A stretch of DNA of 64,000 nt, from positions 1 to 64,000 of the forward strand of contig JIBW01000008.1 of the NCBI GenBank assembly GCA_012970285.1, in the 5' to 3' direction. The position numbers and the translations under genes were made by a program. This document shows positions 51,538 to 60,829 of the stretch, piece after piece. How positions within the stretch are numbered: position 1 is the first letter of the stretch; the number at the start of each line of letters is the position of its first letter. Source of the DNA: Bacillaceae bacterium JMAK1 (GTDB taxonomy: Bacteria; Bacillota; Bacilli; Bacillales; Marinococcaceae). The notes beneath the pieces are model-generated. The model had not been told where the DNA came from. It saw nothing but the letters and a program-made list of their open reading frames with translations, and searched no databases.

Positions 51538-51549
51538 GAGGTGAGAAAG

Positions 51550-52299
51550 ATGCAAAGATGGAAAGTGAAAATAGCATATGACGGTACAGAGTTTTCTGGA
51601 TGGCAAGTGCAACCTGAAAAGCGAACGGTTCAACGTGAAATCAACCAAGCACTTGCACGTATTCATCAAGGAGATCAAGTGAATGTTACTGCGTCTGGAA
51701 GAACAGATGCAGGAGTACATGCAAAAGGACAAATCGTCCACTTTGATTCGCCATTACAAATTCCTGCTGATCGTTGGGCAAAAGCATTAGGAGCTCATTT
51801 ACCTGATGATATTCAAATCATTGAGTCTGTGCCGGTTGCTGCAGATTTTCACGCGCGTTTTGATGCGGTTGCGAAGGAATATCGTTATTTCGTGCGATGT
51901 GGTCAAGAGCGGGATGTGTTTTTGCGACACTATGCTTATCACGTGTACAATAAGCTTGATGAAAGAGCGATGCAATCAGCGTTAGATCATTTAGTCGGGA
52001 CGTTTGATTTCTCATCATTTTGTGCTAGTAATACGAATGTCGTCGACAAAGTTCGTACTCTTTTTGAAGCAAGAGTGGAACGAACCGCAGATGATCAGTA
52101 TGTTTTCGTTTATAGAGGCAACGGATTTTTGTATAACATGGTAAGGATTATAACTGGAACCGTGTTAGCTGTTGGTACTGGGGAAAGAAAGGCTGATCAG
52201 ATCGTTACAATTCGCGATGAGCGAGATCGAAGGTATGCTGGAAAGACAGCACCCGGTCATGGCCTTTATTTATGGGACGTTTATTATAATGATGTATAA
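51550..52299 (+). CDS. truA: TruA, tRNA pseudouridine(38-40) synthase
   Basis: A 249-residue enzyme that modifies the anticodon stem. The catalytic aspartate lies in ASGRTDAGVHA. IAYDGTEFSGWQ and FLYNMVRIITG are conserved. ATG 51550 follows AGAGGTGAG; GTG 51541 is in that site. In B. subtilis rplM follows directly; here a terminator and a foreign operon intervene. Confidence 0.96.
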   Translation: MQRWKVKIAYDGTEFSGWQVQPEKRTVQREINQALARIHQGDQVNVTASGRTDAGVHAKGQIVHFDSPLQIPADRWAKALGAHLPDDIQIIESVPVAADFHARFDAVAKEYRYFVRCGQERDVFLRHYAYHVYNKLDERAMQSALDHLVGTFDFSSFCASNTNVVDKVRTLFEARVERTADDQYVFVYRGNGFLYNMVRIITGTVLAVGTGERKADQIVTIRDERDRRYAGKTAPGHGLYLWDVYYNDV

Positions 52300-52300
52300 C

Positions 52301-52331
52301 AAAAACAGGCTGTCGAACAGTCTGTTTTTTT
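52301..52331 (+). terminator. Intrinsic terminator after truA
   Basis: 13-bp stem AAAAACAGGCTGT/ACAGTCTGTTTTT with one wobble, loop CGA, and a T tract. Confidence 0.92.
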
Positions 52332-52341
52332 GTTGATTCTG

Positions 52342-52370
52342 TTGTGGAGTAGAGGACTGTAGTATATAAT
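52342..52370 (+). promoter_or_regulatory. Sigma-A promoter of the catabolic operon
   Basis: -35 TTGTGG at 52342-52347, 17-bp spacer, consensus -10 TATAAT at 52365-52370. Confidence 0.65.
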
Positions 52371-52409
52371 TTAGATATTAGAATATTTAGTCTTATATAA
52401 ATATAAAAT

Positions 52410-52423
52410 TGTAAGCGTTAACA
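52410..52423 (+). promoter_or_regulatory. cre box (CcpA-binding site)
   Basis: TGTAAGCGTTAACA matches the Bacillus cre consensus at every position. It lies about 35 nt after the predicted transcription start, a typical place for carbon-catabolite repression. Confidence 0.85.
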
Positions 52424-52442
52424 AAAAAGGGAGAGAGTGCGT

Positions 52443-53213
52443 GTGTCACGGTTTAATCAGAAAGTTGCAGTCATCACAGGAGCAGGAAGTGGAATTGGAG
52501 AAGCATTAGCTAAGATTATTGCGCGCGATGGAGGAACGGTCGTTTTAGTTGGACGCACATTGTCTAAGCTTGAGAACGTAGCAAGCGCCATTCGTGAAGA
52601 AGTAGGTGAGGATCGTACGGTTGTTCATCGTGCAGATGTAACGAAGTCTGAAGACATAGAAGCATTAAAATCGGTACTTGAAGAGCGGTTTGGCTCTGTT
52701 GATGTGCTCGTTAATAATGCAGGTGGCTCTTCAAATAAGACCAACATCTTCGAAATGAGTGAAGACGATTGGGTGAAGTCCCAAGATGTGAACTTAAAGA
52801 GTGTGTTCCTCGTCTCTAAAAGCATCGGACAACTTATGAAGAACAATGAAGATCAGAAAGATCGTTCCATTGTCAATGTGGCGTCCTTATCTGGGCATAA
52901 AGCTGGTGCGCATATTCCGCATTATAGTGCTGCGAAAGCAGCGGTTATGAATTTCTCAAGGGCACTGGCTTATGAGCTTGCTCCTTATCAAATTCGAGTG
53001 AACAGTGTATCTCCAGGGTTTGCTCGCACAGACCTTACGAGTGCAGGATTAACGAATGACCGTTTTGTTAAGGCGATTGAGAAGAATACCGCCCTTTCAA
53101 GAGTCGGAACGGCTGAAGAAATTGCGAATGTCATTGCTTTTGTCGCTTCAAGTGAAGCTTCCTATATGACAGGAAGCGACTTGCTCGTTGATGGTGGTTG
53201 GTTACTTACGTAA
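52443..53213 (+). CDS. Short-chain dehydrogenase/reductase
   Basis: A 256-residue classical SDR. The NAD(P)-binding motif is TGAGSGIG (residues 12-19), followed by NNAG (91-94). The catalytic triad is Ser148 and Tyr161-x3-Lys165 (YSAAK). It is probably an oxidoreductase acting on a hydroxy or keto intermediate; the substrate is unknown. GTG 52443 is preferred, 9 nt after AGGGAG; GTG 52437 is too close. It is the first gene of a cre-controlled operon with an acyl-CoA ligase and a lactonase-like hydrolase. Confidence 0.92.
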   Translation: MSRFNQKVAVITGAGSGIGEALAKIIARDGGTVVLVGRTLSKLENVASAIREEVGEDRTVVHRADVTKSEDIEALKSVLEERFGSVDVLVNNAGGSSNKTNIFEMSEDDWVKSQDVNLKSVFLVSKSIGQLMKNNEDQKDRSIVNVASLSGHKAGAHIPHYSAAKAAVMNFSRALAYELAPYQIRVNSVSPGFARTDLTSAGLTNDRFVKAIEKNTALSRVGTAEEIANVIAFVASSEASYMTGSDLLVDGGWLLT

Positions 53214-53249
53214 GATTACAATCTAAATTAGGGTGAGGTGGTTCATTTT

Positions 53250-54914
53250 ATGTTTACAAGACACTATGATCACTGGCCAGAACGTACACCAAAGCGCTTG
53301 AGTATTCCTGAAACAACTCTTTTGGATAATCTAGCTATTAGTGCGAGGCGTTACCCGAATAAATGTGCAATCATTTATTACGATCAAGAAATCACATACC
53401 AGCAGTTGTATGAAGAGCAAAAGCGAGTAGCGGGTTATTTGCAACACGAGCTCGGTGTGAAAAAAGGCGACCGTGTTCTGATTTACATGCAGAATAGCCC
53501 TCAATATGTGATTGCGATTCATGCAATTTTACGAGCGGAAGCCATTGCCGTTCCTATCAATCCGATGATGGTAACAGAAGAAGTGAAGTTTCCGATCGAA
53601 GATAGTGAGGCAACCGTTGCATTTGTCGGCCAGGAATTGTTTGAGCGAGTTAAACCACTTCTTGAGATCACGCCACTCCAGCATGTCATTCTTGCTGCTT
53701 ACTCTGAGTATTTACCAGAGTCTTGCGAGTATGAGTTGCCTGATGTTGTAAAAGCGCCACCGATTGGGAAGGATCCGCAACATATATCTTGGCAAGAAGT
53801 GTTGAGTTACGATCAAGCACCTTTTGCGTATAAGGGTGAGGCAGATGACTTGGCCGTACTACCTTATACGTCGGGAACGACAGGTTTGCCAAAAGGATGC
53901 AAGCATACACACAAAACCGTACAAGCAAATGTCATGTCTGGAAGCCATTGGGGCAATGGATCACCAGAAGCGGTAGCACTAGGTGGATTACCGTTGTTCC
54001 ATGTAACCGGACTGGTTCATTGTATGTTTGTTCCGATTCATTTAGGCGGGACCGTCGTGTTAATGACCCGGTGGAATCGAGACGTTGCGGGAAGATTAAT
54101 TGAGAAACATGAGTGTACAAATTGGACGAATATCTCGACGATGGTCGTTGACTTTTTAGCGAATCCGAACTTATCGAACTATAACTTAAGTAGTTTGTTG
54201 GCAGTGAATGGAGGCGGTGCAGCACTTCCGAAAGCTGTCGGTGAGAAACTCTTTGAAGTGACTGGATTACGTTATGCAGAAGGATATGGTCTCACTGAGA
54301 CGATTTCAACGACACATTCTAACCCTATTGGTAAAGCGAAGTTACAATGCCTTGGCATTCCGAGCTTTGATGTCGATAGTCGAGTTGTCGAACCACTCAC
54401 ATTACAAGAGTTAGGTCCAGGGCAAGAAGGCGAACTTCTCGTTAACGGTCCTCAAGTGTTCAAAGGGTATTGGAATCGACCAGAAGATACGGCTCAAGTC
54501 TTTGTTGAACTTGATGGCAAGACATTTTTTAGAACAGGTGACATTGTTACGTACGATGAAGATGGGTATTTCTATATTGTTGATCGTGTGAAGCGAATGA
54601 TTAATTCTTCAGGGTTTAAAGTATGGCCTGCAGAAGTAGAGTCCAAAATGTACGCTCACCCAGCGGTACAACAATGTTGCATCATTAGTACACCGGATGC
54701 AAGACGGGGAGAAACAGTGAAAGCGGTCATTATTTTAAATGACGGCTTTGAATCAACGACAGAACAAGAGATCATTGATTGGGCAAAGGAAAAGATGGCA
54801 GCCTATAAGTATCCTCGAGTCATTGAATTTACAAAAGCACTACCTGTTTCCGGAAGCGGAAAGATTCTTTGGAGAAAGTTGCAAGACGCTGAACTTCAAA
54901 AATCTAAGTCGTAA
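53250..54914 (+). CDS. Acyl-CoA ligase (AMP-forming), medium/long-chain type
   Basis: A 554-residue ANL-superfamily enzyme that would activate a carboxylic acid through an acyl-AMP to a CoA thioester. The A3 loop is YTSGTTGLPKG (residues 206-216), A5 is EGYGLTE, A7 is FFRTGD, and the C-terminal catalytic lysine is Lys538 (SGSGKILWRKL). ATG 53250 follows GGGTGAGGTGG. It lies 36 nt after the SDR and 18 nt before the phosphotriesterase-like gene. Chain-length preference cannot be read from the sequence. Confidence 0.93.
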   Translation: MFTRHYDHWPERTPKRLSIPETTLLDNLAISARRYPNKCAIIYYDQEITYQQLYEEQKRVAGYLQHELGVKKGDRVLIYMQNSPQYVIAIHAILRAEAIAVPINPMMVTEEVKFPIEDSEATVAFVGQELFERVKPLLEITPLQHVILAAYSEYLPESCEYELPDVVKAPPIGKDPQHISWQEVLSYDQAPFAYKGEADDLAVLPYTSGTTGLPKGCKHTHKTVQANVMSGSHWGNGSPEAVALGGLPLFHVTGLVHCMFVPIHLGGTVVLMTRWNRDVAGRLIEKHECTNWTNISTMVVDFLANPNLSNYNLSSLLAVNGGGAALPKAVGEKLFEVTGLRYAEGYGLTETISTTHSNPIGKAKLQCLGIPSFDVDSRVVEPLTLQELGPGQEGELLVNGPQVFKGYWNRPEDTAQVFVELDGKTFFRTGDIVTYDEDGYFYIVDRVKRMINSSGFKVWPAEVESKMYAHPAVQQCCIISTPDARRGETVKAVIILNDGFESTTEQEIIDWAKEKMAAYKYPRVIEFTKALPVSGSGKILWRKLQDAELQKSKS

Positions 54915-54932
54915 TGGATAGGGGGAGTATTG

Positions 54933-55937
54933 ATGAATTCACTTGTAGAAACGGTTACAGGTCGATTGGCAATTGAAGATCTAGGGAAGACGATGATGCA
55001 TGAACATTTCATCTTTGGCTACCCAGGCTTTGAAGGTGACGTGACGCTCGGGCGATACGACCGTGAAGAAGCGTTACGAGTTGGGATTGATGTATGTGAG
55101 AAGTTGCAACAATTTGGGGTGAACACCGTGGTGGATCCAACGCCAAATGATTGCGGGCGCGATCCAGAAATGCTTAAAGAGATTTCTCTTCGCACAGGGA
55201 TGAACATCGTCTGTGCGAGCGGGTATTATTATGAAGGAGAAGGGGCTCCGGCCTACTTCAAAGCACGAGTGGGATTAAGCAATGCCGAAGAAGAAATCTA
55301 TGAGATGTTCTATAAGGAAGTCACGGATGGCATCGCTGGAACGGAGATCAAACCAGGAGTCATTAAGGTAGGTTCCAGTCGAGGTGTGATTACAGAATAT
55401 GAACAGATGTTTTTTAGGCAAGCTGCACGAATTCAAAAGGAAACAGGTATTCCAATAATGACTCATACGCAAGAAGGAACAATGGGTTATGAGCAAGTCG
55501 AACTTCTGCTCGCACATGGGGCAGATCCTGCGAAAGTGGTAATCGGTCATATGGACGGTACGACGAACATTCGTGATCATTTACGTGTGTTAGAGCGTGG
55601 CGTTACAATTGGATTTGATCGTTTTGGGCTTGAAGGACTTGCCGGTACACCTCTAGATGAGGAAAGGAAAGCTACCCTATTAGGGTTACTTGCGATGGGA
55701 TACGAAGAACAGATCATTCTCTCCCATGACACCGTTAATTATTGGCGAGGTAGACCATTTCCTGAAAGCGATTTCATGAAGACGGTTTTGGAAAAGTGGC
55801 ATGTGCAACATCTATTCGAAAGGGTCTTACCAGAATTACAACAGTCCGGGGTTACAGACGAGACGTTAAACCAGATCTTTACAGGAAACCCAAGTCGAGT
55901 TTTTAAGGGTCAACCAATCAGCGTAAAGCCTTCATAG
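54933..55937 (+). CDS. Phosphotriesterase-family hydrolase (probable lactonase)
   Basis: A 334-residue TIM-barrel amidohydrolase. The binuclear metal site is complete: His23 and His25 (HEH), bridging Lys145 (GVIKVGSS), His178 (THTQ), His206 (GHMD) and Asp266 (SHD). Bacterial relatives of this type are mostly lactonases acting on acyl-homoserine or other lactones, with weak phosphotriesterase activity. Some are uncharacterised. ATG 54933 lies 5 nt after GGGGGAG. A terminator follows. Together with the SDR and acyl-CoA ligase, it suggests lactone catabolism. Confidence 0.9.
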   Translation: MNSLVETVTGRLAIEDLGKTMMHEHFIFGYPGFEGDVTLGRYDREEALRVGIDVCEKLQQFGVNTVVDPTPNDCGRDPEMLKEISLRTGMNIVCASGYYYEGEGAPAYFKARVGLSNAEEEIYEMFYKEVTDGIAGTEIKPGVIKVGSSRGVITEYEQMFFRQAARIQKETGIPIMTHTQEGTMGYEQVELLLAHGADPAKVVIGHMDGTTNIRDHLRVLERGVTIGFDRFGLEGLAGTPLDEERKATLLGLLAMGYEEQIILSHDTVNYWRGRPFPESDFMKTVLEKWHVQHLFERVLPELQQSGVTDETLNQIFTGNPSRVFKGQPISVKPS

Positions 55938-55951
55938 AAGCGGGTTTGGGG

Positions 55952-55976
55952 CCATCTCGAAAGAGGTGGTTTTTCT
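55952..55976 (+). terminator. Intrinsic terminator of the catabolic operon
   Basis: 7-bp stem CCATCTC/GAGGTGG, GAAA tetraloop, five-T tail. Confidence 0.88.
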
Positions 55977-58061: not shown

Positions 58062-58934
58062 TTAAGACGTTGCTTTTTTCTTCGTCGTTGACGTCTTTGT
58101 AGTCGCTGGCTTTTTGGCAGCGGCTTTTTTCTTTGTTTTTGGTTTTGGTTGGTTTTTCTTTGCTCGGTTAATGGACTTCTCTAGTGCTTCCATAATATCG
58201 GTGACGTTATCAGGTGTTGATTTTGTTTCTTCTGATACGGTAACTTCTTCAGCGGATAGCTTTTCTGCAATTAGGGCTTCTAATTTAACTCGGTAATCGT
58301 CTTGATACTTTTCTGGTTCGAATTCTGTTGTAAGTTGTTCGATGAGTAACTTTGCTGTATCGAGTTCTTTCTTTCCGATTTCTTCGCTTTGTTCAGGAAT
58401 GTTAGGGACATCAATTGTAGATCGTACTTCATCAGGAAAGTGAATGGTTTCTACAACTAGGGCACCTTGATAAACACGGATGACAGCAAGTTGTTCCTTT
58501 GAACGAATCATCATTTTGGCGATGCCAATTTTTTGAGTGTCTTTAAGTGCTTCTCTTAATAAAGCGTAAGCTTTTGATCCTCCTTCATTAGGGGATAAGT
58601 AGTAGCTTTTACTAAAGTAAATCGGATCGATATCGTCTAGTTGAACGAAGTCAATAATTTCAACAGCTTTGTCTTCTTGATCAGTTTTTAATTTCTCGAG
58701 TTCTTCATTGTCTAAGATGACGTATTTGTTCTTTGAATACTCATAGGCCTTTACGATGTCGTCATTTGAAACTTCTTCTTCGCAGTTCGGACAGACCTTT
58801 TTATATTTTATCGGTGTTTTGCATTTTTTGTGTAATTGACGCAGTTGAATGTCTTTGTTGTCAGTTGCTGCATGCATTTTTACAGGGATGTTAACGAGCC
58901 CAAAGCTAATTGTGCCTTTCCACATCGTGTGCAT
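58062..58934 (-). CDS. ku: Ku, DNA end-binding protein of bacterial NHEJ
   Basis: A 290-residue homodimeric ring protein that binds double-strand ends and recruits LigD. The Ku core starts HTMWKGTISFGLVNIPVKM, and a CxxC (CPNCEEE) is near residue 50. A Lys/Ala/Thr-rich tail of about 35 residues (AKKPATTKTSTTKKKATS at the end) resembles the DNA-binding extensions of other Ku proteins. The start is taken at the ATG 7 nt after AAGGAGGG; the upstream in-frame reading lacks an SD. It is divergent from ligD across about 100 nt. Confidence 0.95.
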   Translation of the reverse strand: MHTMWKGTISFGLVNIPVKMHAATDNKDIQLRQLHKKCKTPIKYKKVCPNCEEEVSNDDIVKAYEYSKNKYVILDNEELEKLKTDQEDKAVEIIDFVQLDDIDPIYFSKSYYLSPNEGGSKAYALLREALKDTQKIGIAKMMIRSKEQLAVIRVYQGALVVETIHFPDEVRSTIDVPNIPEQSEEIGKKELDTAKLLIEQLTTEFEPEKYQDDYRVKLEALIAEKLSAEEVTVSEETKSTPDNVTDIMEALEKSINRAKKNQPKPKTKKKAAAKKPATTKTSTTKKKATS

Positions 58935-59038
58935 GATGCATCCCTCCTTAATAAGTAGTTTGGATTTGGGAAGTTTTTTTATACGAGAGGAATAGTAATT
59001 TGCAGGAATTAACACAACCTAATCACAGGTGGTGAACG

Positions 59039-60829
59039 ATGATGGACGTTATGAAGCCAATTATAAGTGAAACAGTTCCAACGGGAGATGAATGGTTGTA
59101 TGAAATTAAGTATGACGGATTTCGGTGTCGCCTAATTTGGACAAGCGAGACTGTGACATTGCTTAGTAAAAACAATCAACGTTTGAACGAGCGATTTCCG
59201 GAAGTGGTGGAATGGTTCAAGACCAATGTTCACTATGTACAAGACTTCTTACCTGTAGAAATTGATGGAGAACTCGTCGTGTTAAATCATCGTTATCAAG
59301 CAAACTTTAGCCTAATGCAAGTGCGTGGGCGGATGAGAAGTGCTGACCGGATTCAAGAAAAGACGAACACAAGGCCTGCGACCTTGATGGCTTTTGACCT
59401 TATTCGGAATTTGGGTGAAGAGATAAGTGATCTGCCGCTTGAAAGGCGTAAAGAACAGCTTGGAACAATCACTGATTGTCTTCCCAATAGCGATAGGTTT
59501 TACGTTGTTGAGACGTTTACTGAGCGATCTGTCATAGAAAAGTGTGTTTTCGATTATCAATGCGAAGGAATGGTGGCGAAGAAAAAAACGAGTGCCTATC
59601 AAAAGGGGAAGCAACACCACGATTGGTTAAAGATAAAAAACTGGCGTGTGATCCAAGGAATTTTGACGCATTATAATCCGAGCAATGGTTATTTTACCGT
59701 TCAAGCTTATGAGGATCATGGTCAATTATTGGAGATCGGAAAATGTAAACACGGTTTATCGAAGGAGTCGGCCTCGATGCTCCACGAACTCTTTCGAAAA
59801 GAAGGTGAAGAACTAAGGGGGCAATACCATTTACCAGCTGCGGTGGTCGGGAAGATTCGTACGCTAGGTGTAGACTCTGGTGAGATGCGAGAGCCTGAAT
59901 TTGAACGGATTGATCCGAGCATTCAATTAAGAGACTGTACGGTTTCGCAAGTTGAAATTGACGTGGCGCAGTTGCCGACGGCAGTTCATATTAAGAATTT
60001 GGAAAAGGAATTTTGGTCGGATTATACGAAGAAAGACTTGTTGGTGTATATGCGTGACATTGCACCCTACATGTTGCCATTCCTTAAGGACAAAGCGTTG
60101 ACGATTATTCGAGCACCTGACGGGGTGGCAAAGGAAACGTTCTTTCAAAAACAATTTCCAGATTATGCTCCGCAAGATGTTTTAGAAACGACTGGGGCTA
60201 ACGAGATTGTATGTAACCGACTAGTTGGTTTACTTTGGCTAGCCAATCATGGTGCAATTGAATATCATGTTCCGTTTCAACGGTTACAATGCATGCATCC
60301 CGATGAAATTGTTTTTGATTTAGATCCACCGAATCGAGAGCATTTTTCTTTAGCGATTCGTGCTGCTCAATTTCTTAAGCAAATTTTAGATGGTCTTGAC
60401 CTTATTTCTTTTGTGAAAACGTCTGGAAATAAAGGCTTGCAAGTATCCATCCCGATCAAAGAAGGAAGTTTAACGTATGAAGAAACAGCCCTTATTACCG
60501 AAGGGATTGCAAAAATAATGGTCGACGCTCATCCGGATGACTTTACGACGGAGCGGCTGAAAAAGAATCGAAACGAACGATTGTACGTTGACTATGTACA
60601 GCACGGGAAAGATAAAACGCTTATAGCGCCTTATAGTCCGAGATTACAAGTGGAAGGTACTATTTCCACGCCGTTGTATTGGCATGAACTTACCGATAAT
60701 TTAGAACCAACAACGTTTACGTTGGGCAATGTCGTGCAACGTATACACGACATTGGGTGTCCCTTCGCCACGTATTCCACGGCTCGGAAGCAACAACGAA
60801 TGGAGCATGTACTGCGTTTAGTAAAGTGA
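59039..60829 (+). CDS. ligD: LigD, NHEJ DNA ligase-polymerase
   Basis: About 596 residues in two parts. The N-terminal ATP-dependent ligase has adenylated Lys24 in EIKYDGF and an OB domain to about residue 300. The C-terminal primase-polymerase domain has the metal-binding IVFDLDPP and KTSGNKGLQV motifs. The 3'-phosphoesterase domain of Pseudomonas and mycobacterial LigD is absent, as in other Bacilli. ATG 59039 and 59042 both follow AGGTGGTGA. It repairs ends with Ku, probably in spores or stationary cells. A weak hairpin (AGTGA/TCACT, then TTTTT) follows the stop. Confidence 0.95.
   Translation: MMDVMKPIISETVPTGDEWLYEIKYDGFRCRLIWTSETVTLLSKNNQRLNERFPEVVEWFKTNVHYVQDFLPVEIDGELVVLNHRYQANFSLMQVRGRMRSADRIQEKTNTRPATLMAFDLIRNLGEEISDLPLERRKEQLGTITDCLPNSDRFYVVETFTERSVIEKCVFDYQCEGMVAKKKTSAYQKGKQHHDWLKIKNWRVIQGILTHYNPSNGYFTVQAYEDHGQLLEIGKCKHGLSKESASMLHELFRKEGEELRGQYHLPAAVVGKIRTLGVDSGEMREPEFERIDPSIQLRDCTVSQVEIDVAQLPTAVHIKNLEKEFWSDYTKKDLLVYMRDIAPYMLPFLKDKALTIIRAPDGVAKETFFQKQFPDYAPQDVLETTGANEIVCNRLVGLLWLANHGAIEYHVPFQRLQCMHPDEIVFDLDPPNREHFSLAIRAAQFLKQILDGLDLISFVKTSGNKGLQVSIPIKEGSLTYEETALITEGIAKIMVDAHPDDFTTERLKKNRNERLYVDYVQHGKDKTLIAPYSPRLQVEGTISTPLYWHELTDNLEPTTFTLGNVVQRIHDIGCPFATYSTARKQQRMEHVLRLVK

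What the first reader, a model, noticed from the sequence alone, without database searches (positions are those of the whole stretch)
52342..55976. Catabolite-controlled SDR / acyl-CoA ligase / phosphotriesterase-like lactonase operon inserted between truA and rplM
A three-gene unit with its own promoter, a perfect cre box and a terminator splits a normally contiguous ribosomal block. The metal site of the hydrolase, the SDR triad and the ligase catalytic lysine are all intact. A lactonase opening a ring, an SDR oxidising the hydroxy acid and a ligase forming the CoA thioester make a coherent path into beta-oxidation. The lactonase-plus-ligase pairing recalls the qsdA/qsdC genes of Rhodococcus for gamma-lactone and AHL degradation. 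The substrate and the order of reactions are inferred.
Basis: partly seen in the sequence, partly recalled or inferred. Interest (0 to 1): 0.72.

Follow-up and report, generated by a model that had tools for sequence, protein, structure and literature searches.

The report
Displaced piece of lactone-degradation gene cluster
Three enzyme genes lodged between two housekeeping genes of a Geomicrobium bacterium look like a broken-off piece of a larger gene set that probably lets Bacillus-like bacteria eat lactones (ring-shaped fatty acids), by chemistry recently described in mammals.

Summary
An SDR, an acyl-CoA ligase and a phosphotriesterase-like lactonase (PLL) lie between truA and rplM, with a terminator and a cre-like box that two other Geomicrobium genomes keep. 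truA and rplM are adjacent in 23 of 29 family genomes. The PLL is about 59% identical to a Geobacillus lactonase and keeps its metal ligands and Tyr/Arg pair.

Orthologues of all three genes sit in a 17-25 kb catabolic cluster in some other Bacillales, with an ACAD11-type dehydrogenase, an APH-type kinase, ligases, hydratases and, often, a Liv-type transporter. In this genome most of that set is on another contig, so the window operon looks displaced. Kinase and dehydrogenase match mammalian ACAD11 (P. putida LvaA/LvaC), whose chemistry feeds 4-hydroxyacyl-CoA into beta-oxidation.

Best reading: PLL opens a gamma-lactone, the ligase makes 4-hydroxyacyl-CoA, and the remote kinase/ACAD11 pair converts it to enoyl-CoA. 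The SDR has an NADP(H)-type motif and more likely reduces a 4-oxo compound (LvaD-like) than oxidises the hydroxy acid. No substrate was tested. It is a new variant joining known kinds (qsd plus lva), moderately interesting.

The parts
51541..52299 (+). truA, left flank of the insert
52301..52329 (+). terminator-like hairpin after truA
52342..52370 (+). putative promoter TTGTGG-17-TATAAT (weak -35)
   Evidence: sequence; nearly invariant in three Geomicrobium genomes; not called by the scan
52409..52423 (+). cre-like box TTGTAAGCGTTAACA, downstream of the -10
   Evidence: fitting variant in L041 and L042
52437..53213 (+). SDR with NADP(H)-type motif VLVGRT; orthologue of the SDR next to a hydratase in the Bacillales cluster
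53238..54914 (+). AMP-forming acyl-CoA ligase, PRK08314 subfamily; likely ATG 53250
54930..55937 (+). phosphotriesterase-like lactonase (PF02126), 189 of 323 positions identical to 3f4c; likely ATG 54933
55948..55973 (+). terminator-like hairpin ending the operon
   Evidence: region aligned in L041 and L042
56131..56568 (+). rplM, right flank of the insert (the ORF list starts it at ATG 56101)

Best explanation
The operon is a displaced part of a Bacillales gene cluster for gamma-lactone / 4-hydroxy-acid catabolism. Proposed course: the PLL hydrolyses a gamma-lactone to a 4-hydroxy acid; the ligase makes 4-hydroxyacyl-CoA; an APH-type kinase encoded elsewhere phosphorylates the 4-hydroxyl; the ACAD11-type enzyme encoded beside that kinase eliminates phosphate to give 2-enoyl-CoA, which enters beta-oxidation. 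The SDR would reduce 4-oxoacyl-CoA to 4-hydroxyacyl-CoA, as LvaD does, or adjust stereochemistry. A Liv-type ABC transporter encoded with the remote genes would import the substrate. CcpA at the cre box would shut the operon off when sugar is plentiful. Shown: gene families, conserved residues, shared cluster membership in relatives, the empty site in relatives, and the remote kinase/ACAD11/transporter set in the same genome. Inferred: substrate, order of reactions, direction of the SDR, import, CcpA control, and that the operon moved rather than arose in place.
For: Orthologues of all three genes lie in one cluster with kinase and ACAD11-type genes in G293 (L078 + L185), G032 (L081 + L188) and G359 (L189). 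Kinase at E <= 1e-60 in 56 of 56 PLL genomes of the order, within 25 kb of the PLL in 31 of 56 by my count. ACAD11-type gene (E <= 1e-140) in 55 of 56 PLL genomes against 121 of 341 others, within 25 kb in 29 of 56: 28 by coordinates plus G400. Own genome: ComB-like, kinase, ACAD11-type, SDR, ligase, LivHMGFK, thiolase, ACAD and SDR genes on contig C5, the Liv proteins 50-73% identical to those beside PLLs. ACAD11-type protein: 485 bits to 4hr3, 470-473 to ACAD11 structures, 156 to the next ACAD; the Arg/His/Arg helix and catalytic Asp named in PMC12440821 (passages) are kept in the alignment. Kinase: 351 bits to 9o56, 154-157 to ACAD11. LvaA/LvaC/ACAD10 chemistry: PMC11342911 (passages). qsd operon needed for gamma-caprolactone use: PMC6476934 (passages).
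Against: The window itself has no kinase or dehydrogenase; the two loci are on different contigs and coregulation is untested. GkaP, a close characterised relative, has delta-decanolactone as best substrate (PMC4338136, passages), while ACAD10-dependent phosphorylation was not seen with 5-hydroxyhexanoate (PMC11342911, passages). 26 of 56 PLL genomes lack this ligase directly upstream, and 10 of 56 had none of the 14 probe genes near the PLL (contig ends limit some). 121 of 341 genomes without the PLL have the ACAD11-type gene. Kinase presence in PLL-free genomes of the order was not measured. In L049, L055 and L082 the PLL sits beside genes I recognise as sugar-acid catabolism. NCBIfam names the ligase 'long-chain'. 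A FadE-type control is in 372 of 397 genomes, too common to rule out that co-presence reflects versatile genomes.
Confidence: 0.6

Rival explanations
1. A delta-lactone (5-hydroxy acid) or other hydroxy-acid path in which the SDR oxidises the ring-opened product; the remote kinase/ACAD11 genes serve another substrate.
For: GkaP's best substrate is delta-decanolactone; only SDR, ligase and PLL are in the operon.
Against: SDR, ligase and PLL orthologues are clustered with kinase and ACAD11-type genes in other genomes; the SDR motif is of the NADP(H) type (recalled rule).
Confidence: 0.2
2. A qsd-like quorum-quenching or AHL-scavenging unit: the PLL opens acyl-homoserine lactones and the ligase activates released acyl chains.
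For: PLL-ligase pairing as in Rhodococcus qsdA-qsdC, needed for AHL and gamma-caprolactone degradation; PLL residues kept.
Against: No TetR-type gene beside the PLL in the window; the shared cluster carries 4-hydroxyacyl-CoA-type enzymes, for which AHL breakdown has no evident need (inference).
Confidence: 0.12
3. Catabolism of a more complex plant or terpenoid lactone taken up by the Liv-type transporter, with the ACAD11-type steps used late in chain shortening.
For: Large cluster with Liv-type transporter and several SDRs and ligases.
Against: I recognised no monooxygenase or ring-cleavage gene in the stretches read, but not every open frame there was identified.
Confidence: 0.08

Closest known systems
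Rhodococcus erythropolis qsd operon (QsdA lactonase, QsdC ligase, QsdR)
   Same: PLL next to an acyl-CoA ligase; gamma-lactone catabolism (PMC6262395 abstract and passages; PMC6476934 passages)
   Different: Here an SDR is added, no TetR gene is adjacent, a cre-like box is present, and likely later pathway genes are recognisable on another contig
Pseudomonas putida lva operon (LvaEDABC) and mammalian ACAD10/ACAD11
   Same: Ligase, SDR, APH-type kinase and ACAD11-type enzyme with conserved special residues
   Different: A lactonase is added; genes are split over two loci in this genome; a LvaB equivalent was not looked for
Geobacillus kaustophilus PLL, GkaP (3tn3), and 3f4c
   Same: 3tn3 and 3f4c score about 440 bits; 189 of 323 positions identical to 3f4c; same metal ligands, Tyr99, Arg230, Trp271, Pro275
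   Different: Substrate range of the window protein is unknown

Membership tests
Phosphotriesterase-like lactonase (PLL) | Six metal ligands H23, H25, K145, H178, H206, D266 (GkaP numbering) | tested here: met
   H24, H26, K146, H179, H207, D267
Phosphotriesterase-like lactonase (PLL) | Conserved active-site Tyr99 and loop-7 Arg230 | tested here: met
   Y100 and R231 by the alignment
Phosphotriesterase-like lactonase (PLL) | Lactonase activity | not testable with these tools
   needs purified enzyme
qsd operon | PLL adjacent to a fatty acyl-CoA ligase | tested here: met
qsd operon | TetR-type qsdR divergent from and within 200 bp of the lactonase gene | tested here: not met
   the neighbours are the ligase and rplM
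qsd operon | Ligase orthologous to QsdC | not tested
   QsdC sequence not obtained
lva / ACAD10-ACAD11 pathway (remote cluster of the same genome) | ACAD with the Arg/His/Arg helix and catalytic Asp special to ACAD10/11 and LvaC | tested here: met
   alignment; residues from PMC12440821 passages; the paper's numbers equal chain position plus one by my count
lva / ACAD10-ACAD11 pathway (remote cluster of the same genome) | APH-type kinase related to the ACAD11 kinase domain, encoded next to the ACAD | tested here: met
lva / ACAD10-ACAD11 pathway | LvaD-type 4-oxoacyl-CoA reductase | tested here: inconclusive
   window SDR has an NADP(H)-type motif (recalled rule); LvaD sequence not compared
CcpA-controlled operon | cre-like box near the promoter, kept in relatives | tested here: met
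   the match alone is not significant
CcpA-controlled operon | CcpA binding and glucose repression | not testable with these tools
   needs experiment

The most novel reading that the evidence does not exclude
Many Bacillales carry a complete gamma-lactone route in which a PLL supplies 4-hydroxy acids to a bacterial form of the ACAD10/11 phosphorylation-elimination pathway. This would give this PLL branch a physiological role; Geomicrobium would run the route from two separate loci after part of the cluster moved into the truA-rplM gap.
Probability: 0.5. Interest if true: 0.65.

Novelty: new variant of a known kind. Interest (0 to 1): 0.5.

Why it matters
As far as I recall, the natural substrates of phosphotriesterase-like lactonases are debated; they are mostly studied as quorum quenchers or pesticide hydrolases. 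A recurrent cluster joining a PLL and a ligase to the 4-hydroxyacyl-CoA kinase/dehydrogenase pair recently described in mammals makes a concrete, testable proposal for one branch, and would extend that pathway to lactones in Gram-positive bacteria.

Tried and rejected
Considered and set aside: the three genes as an isolated pathway (orthologues cluster with many others); recent foreign DNA by composition (GC 0.44-0.46 and third-position GC 0.37-0.41 against 0.38-0.45 and 0.30-0.41 in six other genes of the window); recent plasmid origin of the PLL (the top-listed plasmid hit is 44% identical). The tree of 65 PLLs puts the three Geomicrobium sequences on a long branch with G199 of another family (support 99/88), not with the other members of their own family; this fits an old transfer but long branches are unsure. 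The tree of 37 ligases does not resolve their place. The FadE-type control was too common to discriminate (372 of 397). The one PLL genome without an ACAD11-type hit, G371, has its PLL 19.6 kb from a contig start, about where that gene would lie, and its kinase 11.6 kb from the PLL; the missing gene was not looked for further. Outside the order the PLL is rare: 7 of 299 genomes of the phylum at E <= 1e-60, two of them of this order.

Print: I looked for papers joining a PLL to the LvaA/LvaC or ACAD10/11 pathway with (40 papers matched, 20 listed; 245 matched, 15 listed; 4 matched, all listed), reading listings only. I saw none; by its term counts no paper listed holds both sides. One search asked for three terms, so a paper with one term from each side would be missed. 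The library holds open-licence PMC papers only. The original LvaEDABC paper and the 2012 gamma-caprolactone paper were seen only as references.

Full report
What is there. Between truA (51541-52299) and rplM lie three genes on the + strand: an SDR, an AMP-forming acyl-CoA ligase and a phosphotriesterase-family protein. The genome belongs with Geomicrobium: its same-genus relatives G008 and G009 match contigs named G. sediminis DSM 25540 and Geomicrobium sp. JCM 19038, which hold the same insert at the same place with PLLs 94% and 93% identical. Of 29 family genomes (the own one included), 23 have truA and rplM 159-311 bp apart, including G010 of the same genus (270 bp); 3 have this insert, 2 have a gap of 1029 bp, and 1 showed no rplM in the fetched stretch. 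In the family, 11 of 29 genomes have a PLL at E <= 1e-60.

Control signals. A terminator-like hairpin closes the operon (55948-55973) and another follows truA. The proposed promoter has a good -10 and a weak -35. From there to the cre box one base differs among three genomes. The cre-like box is TTGTAAGCGTTAACA in the window and TTGTAAGCGCTCACA in the other two; the pattern alone has 5 matches in the window against 1.54 expected. Further matches lie in the remote cluster region of the same genome, among them L154 3339, inside the first part of livH.

The lactonase. By sequence the best solved relatives are 3f4c and the GkaP structures such as 3tn3 (about 440 bits), then the DR0930 group (up to about 385), then the SsoPox-like aryldialkylphosphatases (about 160-168) and parathion hydrolase-type enzymes (about 122-142) (the species of 3f4c and DR0930 and the name SsoPox are recalled). 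Identity to 3f4c is 189 of 323 aligned positions. The six metal ligands, Tyr99, Arg230, Trp271 and Pro275 of GkaP are kept. It passes the sequence tests made for a PLL; activity is untested.

The company it keeps. In the order, 56 of 397 sampled genomes have this PLL at E <= 1e-80. For all 56 I examined the DNA around the PLL, up to 9.5 kb away where contig and fetched stretch allowed, usually about 8 kb upstream. The ligase orthologue is directly upstream in 30 of 56; an SDR orthologue (>= 50%) is near in 25, an enoyl-CoA hydratase in 26, Liv-type transporter genes in 21, and the kinase in only 3, because it usually lies farther off. SDR and ligase together occur in 16; 10 had no match to any of the 14 probes. 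The order SDR-ligase-PLL without genes between them was seen only in the three Geomicrobium genomes. Ten representative neighbours were checked with Pfam; other names are my recognition of sequences.

The long cluster. I read five longer stretches. In G293, G032 and G359 the order is ACAD11-type, SDR, thiolase (G293 and G032), SDR, a second ligase, TetR, 3-hydroxyacyl-CoA dehydrogenase-like, hydratase, thioesterase, kinase, ComB-like, FadE-type ACAD, SDR (orthologue of the window gene), hydratase, QOR (G032 and G359), Liv set (G293 and G032), ligase, PLL (with for the PLL end). L187 (G340) shows much the same order as far as the transporter, without a listed FadE-type or thioesterase gene; its ligase and PLL are in L162. 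In G304 (L186) the ACAD11-type gene is 16 kb beyond the PLL with other genes between; the kinase lies outside that stretch, about 19 kb from the PLL.

The other half in this genome. Contig C5, about 214.7-231.3 kb (L153 and L154), holds ComB-like, kinase, ACAD11-type, SDR, a regulator-like gene, ligase, LivHMGFK, a thioesterase-like gene, thiolase, ACAD, SDR and two MaoC-like genes. Ten of these were checked with NCBIfam; the regulator-like, thioesterase-like and MaoC-like names are by eye. That the window operon is a displaced part of the cluster is inferred from this and from the empty site in relatives.

Why 4-hydroxy acids. The remote ACAD scores 485 bits with 4hr3, 470-473 with ACAD11 structures, and at most 156 with any other ACAD. 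In the printed alignment it keeps the Arg, His, Arg helix and the Asp that PMC12440821 (passages) names for ACAD11 and links to LvaC. The kinase matches 9o56 (351 bits), ACAD11 (154-157) and 3dxp (127). PMC11342911 (passages) describes phosphorylation of 4-hydroxyacyl-CoA and phosphate elimination to 2-enoyl-CoA, and reports that cells formed no phosphorylated product from 5- or 6-hydroxyhexanoate. PMC6476934 (passages) states that gamma-caprolactone assimilation by rhodococci needs the qsd operon. PMC9628823 (passages) gives LvaD as 4-oxopentanoyl-CoA 4-dehydrogenase.

Statistics. The ACAD11-type gene (E <= 1e-140) is in 176 of 397 genomes: 55 of 56 with the PLL and 121 of 341 without (Fisher p about 5e-21; by genus 22 of 22 against 41 of 113, p about 5e-9; genus overlap read by eye). 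Relatedness makes these p-values too strong. The kinase (E <= 1e-60) is in 56 of 56 PLL genomes; I did not measure it in PLL-free genomes. Physical linkage is the stronger evidence: the ACAD11-type gene within 25 kb in 29 of 56 (and, for G400), from 9 of 22 PLL genera by my count; the kinase within 25 kb in 31 of 56 by my count. Of the other 27, one has no ACAD11-type hit and 26 have it farther off or on another contig, this genome among them.

Against. 121 of 341 genomes without the PLL have the ACAD11-type gene, so its substrate need not come from lactones. GkaP's best substrate is a delta-lactone. Some PLLs sit beside sugar-acid genes (L049, L055, L082, my recognition). The SDR direction rests on a recalled cofactor rule: VGRT is kept in 24 of 25 orthologues whose alignment covers it, and 3 further rows do not cover it. 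A FadE-type control was too common (372 of 397) to discriminate.

Verdict. It is a new variant joining two known kinds, qsd and lva/ACAD11, found as a displaced fragment. I saw no paper joining them in the limited searches named in Tried and rejected.

Noticed in passing
window 58062-60829: Divergent genes that look like Ku and LigD (bacterial non-homologous end joining), recognised by eye, close to the ribosomal block.
   Followed up: no
L135 and L136 (G010 C54 6696-7720): In G010, the Geomicrobium without the PLL, the kinase-like gene matches in two separate frames (a break or sequencing error), while its ACAD11-type neighbour matches in one open frame.
   Followed up: no
L120, L121: Two family genomes have 1029 bp between truA and rplM, so something else may be inserted at the same place.
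   Followed up: no
L049, L055, L082: In two Halobacillus records and in G195 a PLL relative sits beside genes that look like sugar-acid (gluconate/KDG) catabolism, suggesting a sugar-lactone substrate for that branch.
   Followed up: partly
L153 15759-16505; L185, L187, L188, L189; L043 3423-4223: A 2-phosphosulfolactate-phosphatase-like (ComB-type) gene lies next to the kinase in 4 of the 5 longer stretches and in this genome, and one that looks alike is near the PLL in a Rubrobacter contig; its role is unexplained.
   Followed up: no
L046: The record titled Chryseobacterium sp. ISL-80 carries a Bacillaceae-type cluster on a contig of the same length as one of order member G216; the title is probably wrong.
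   Followed up: no
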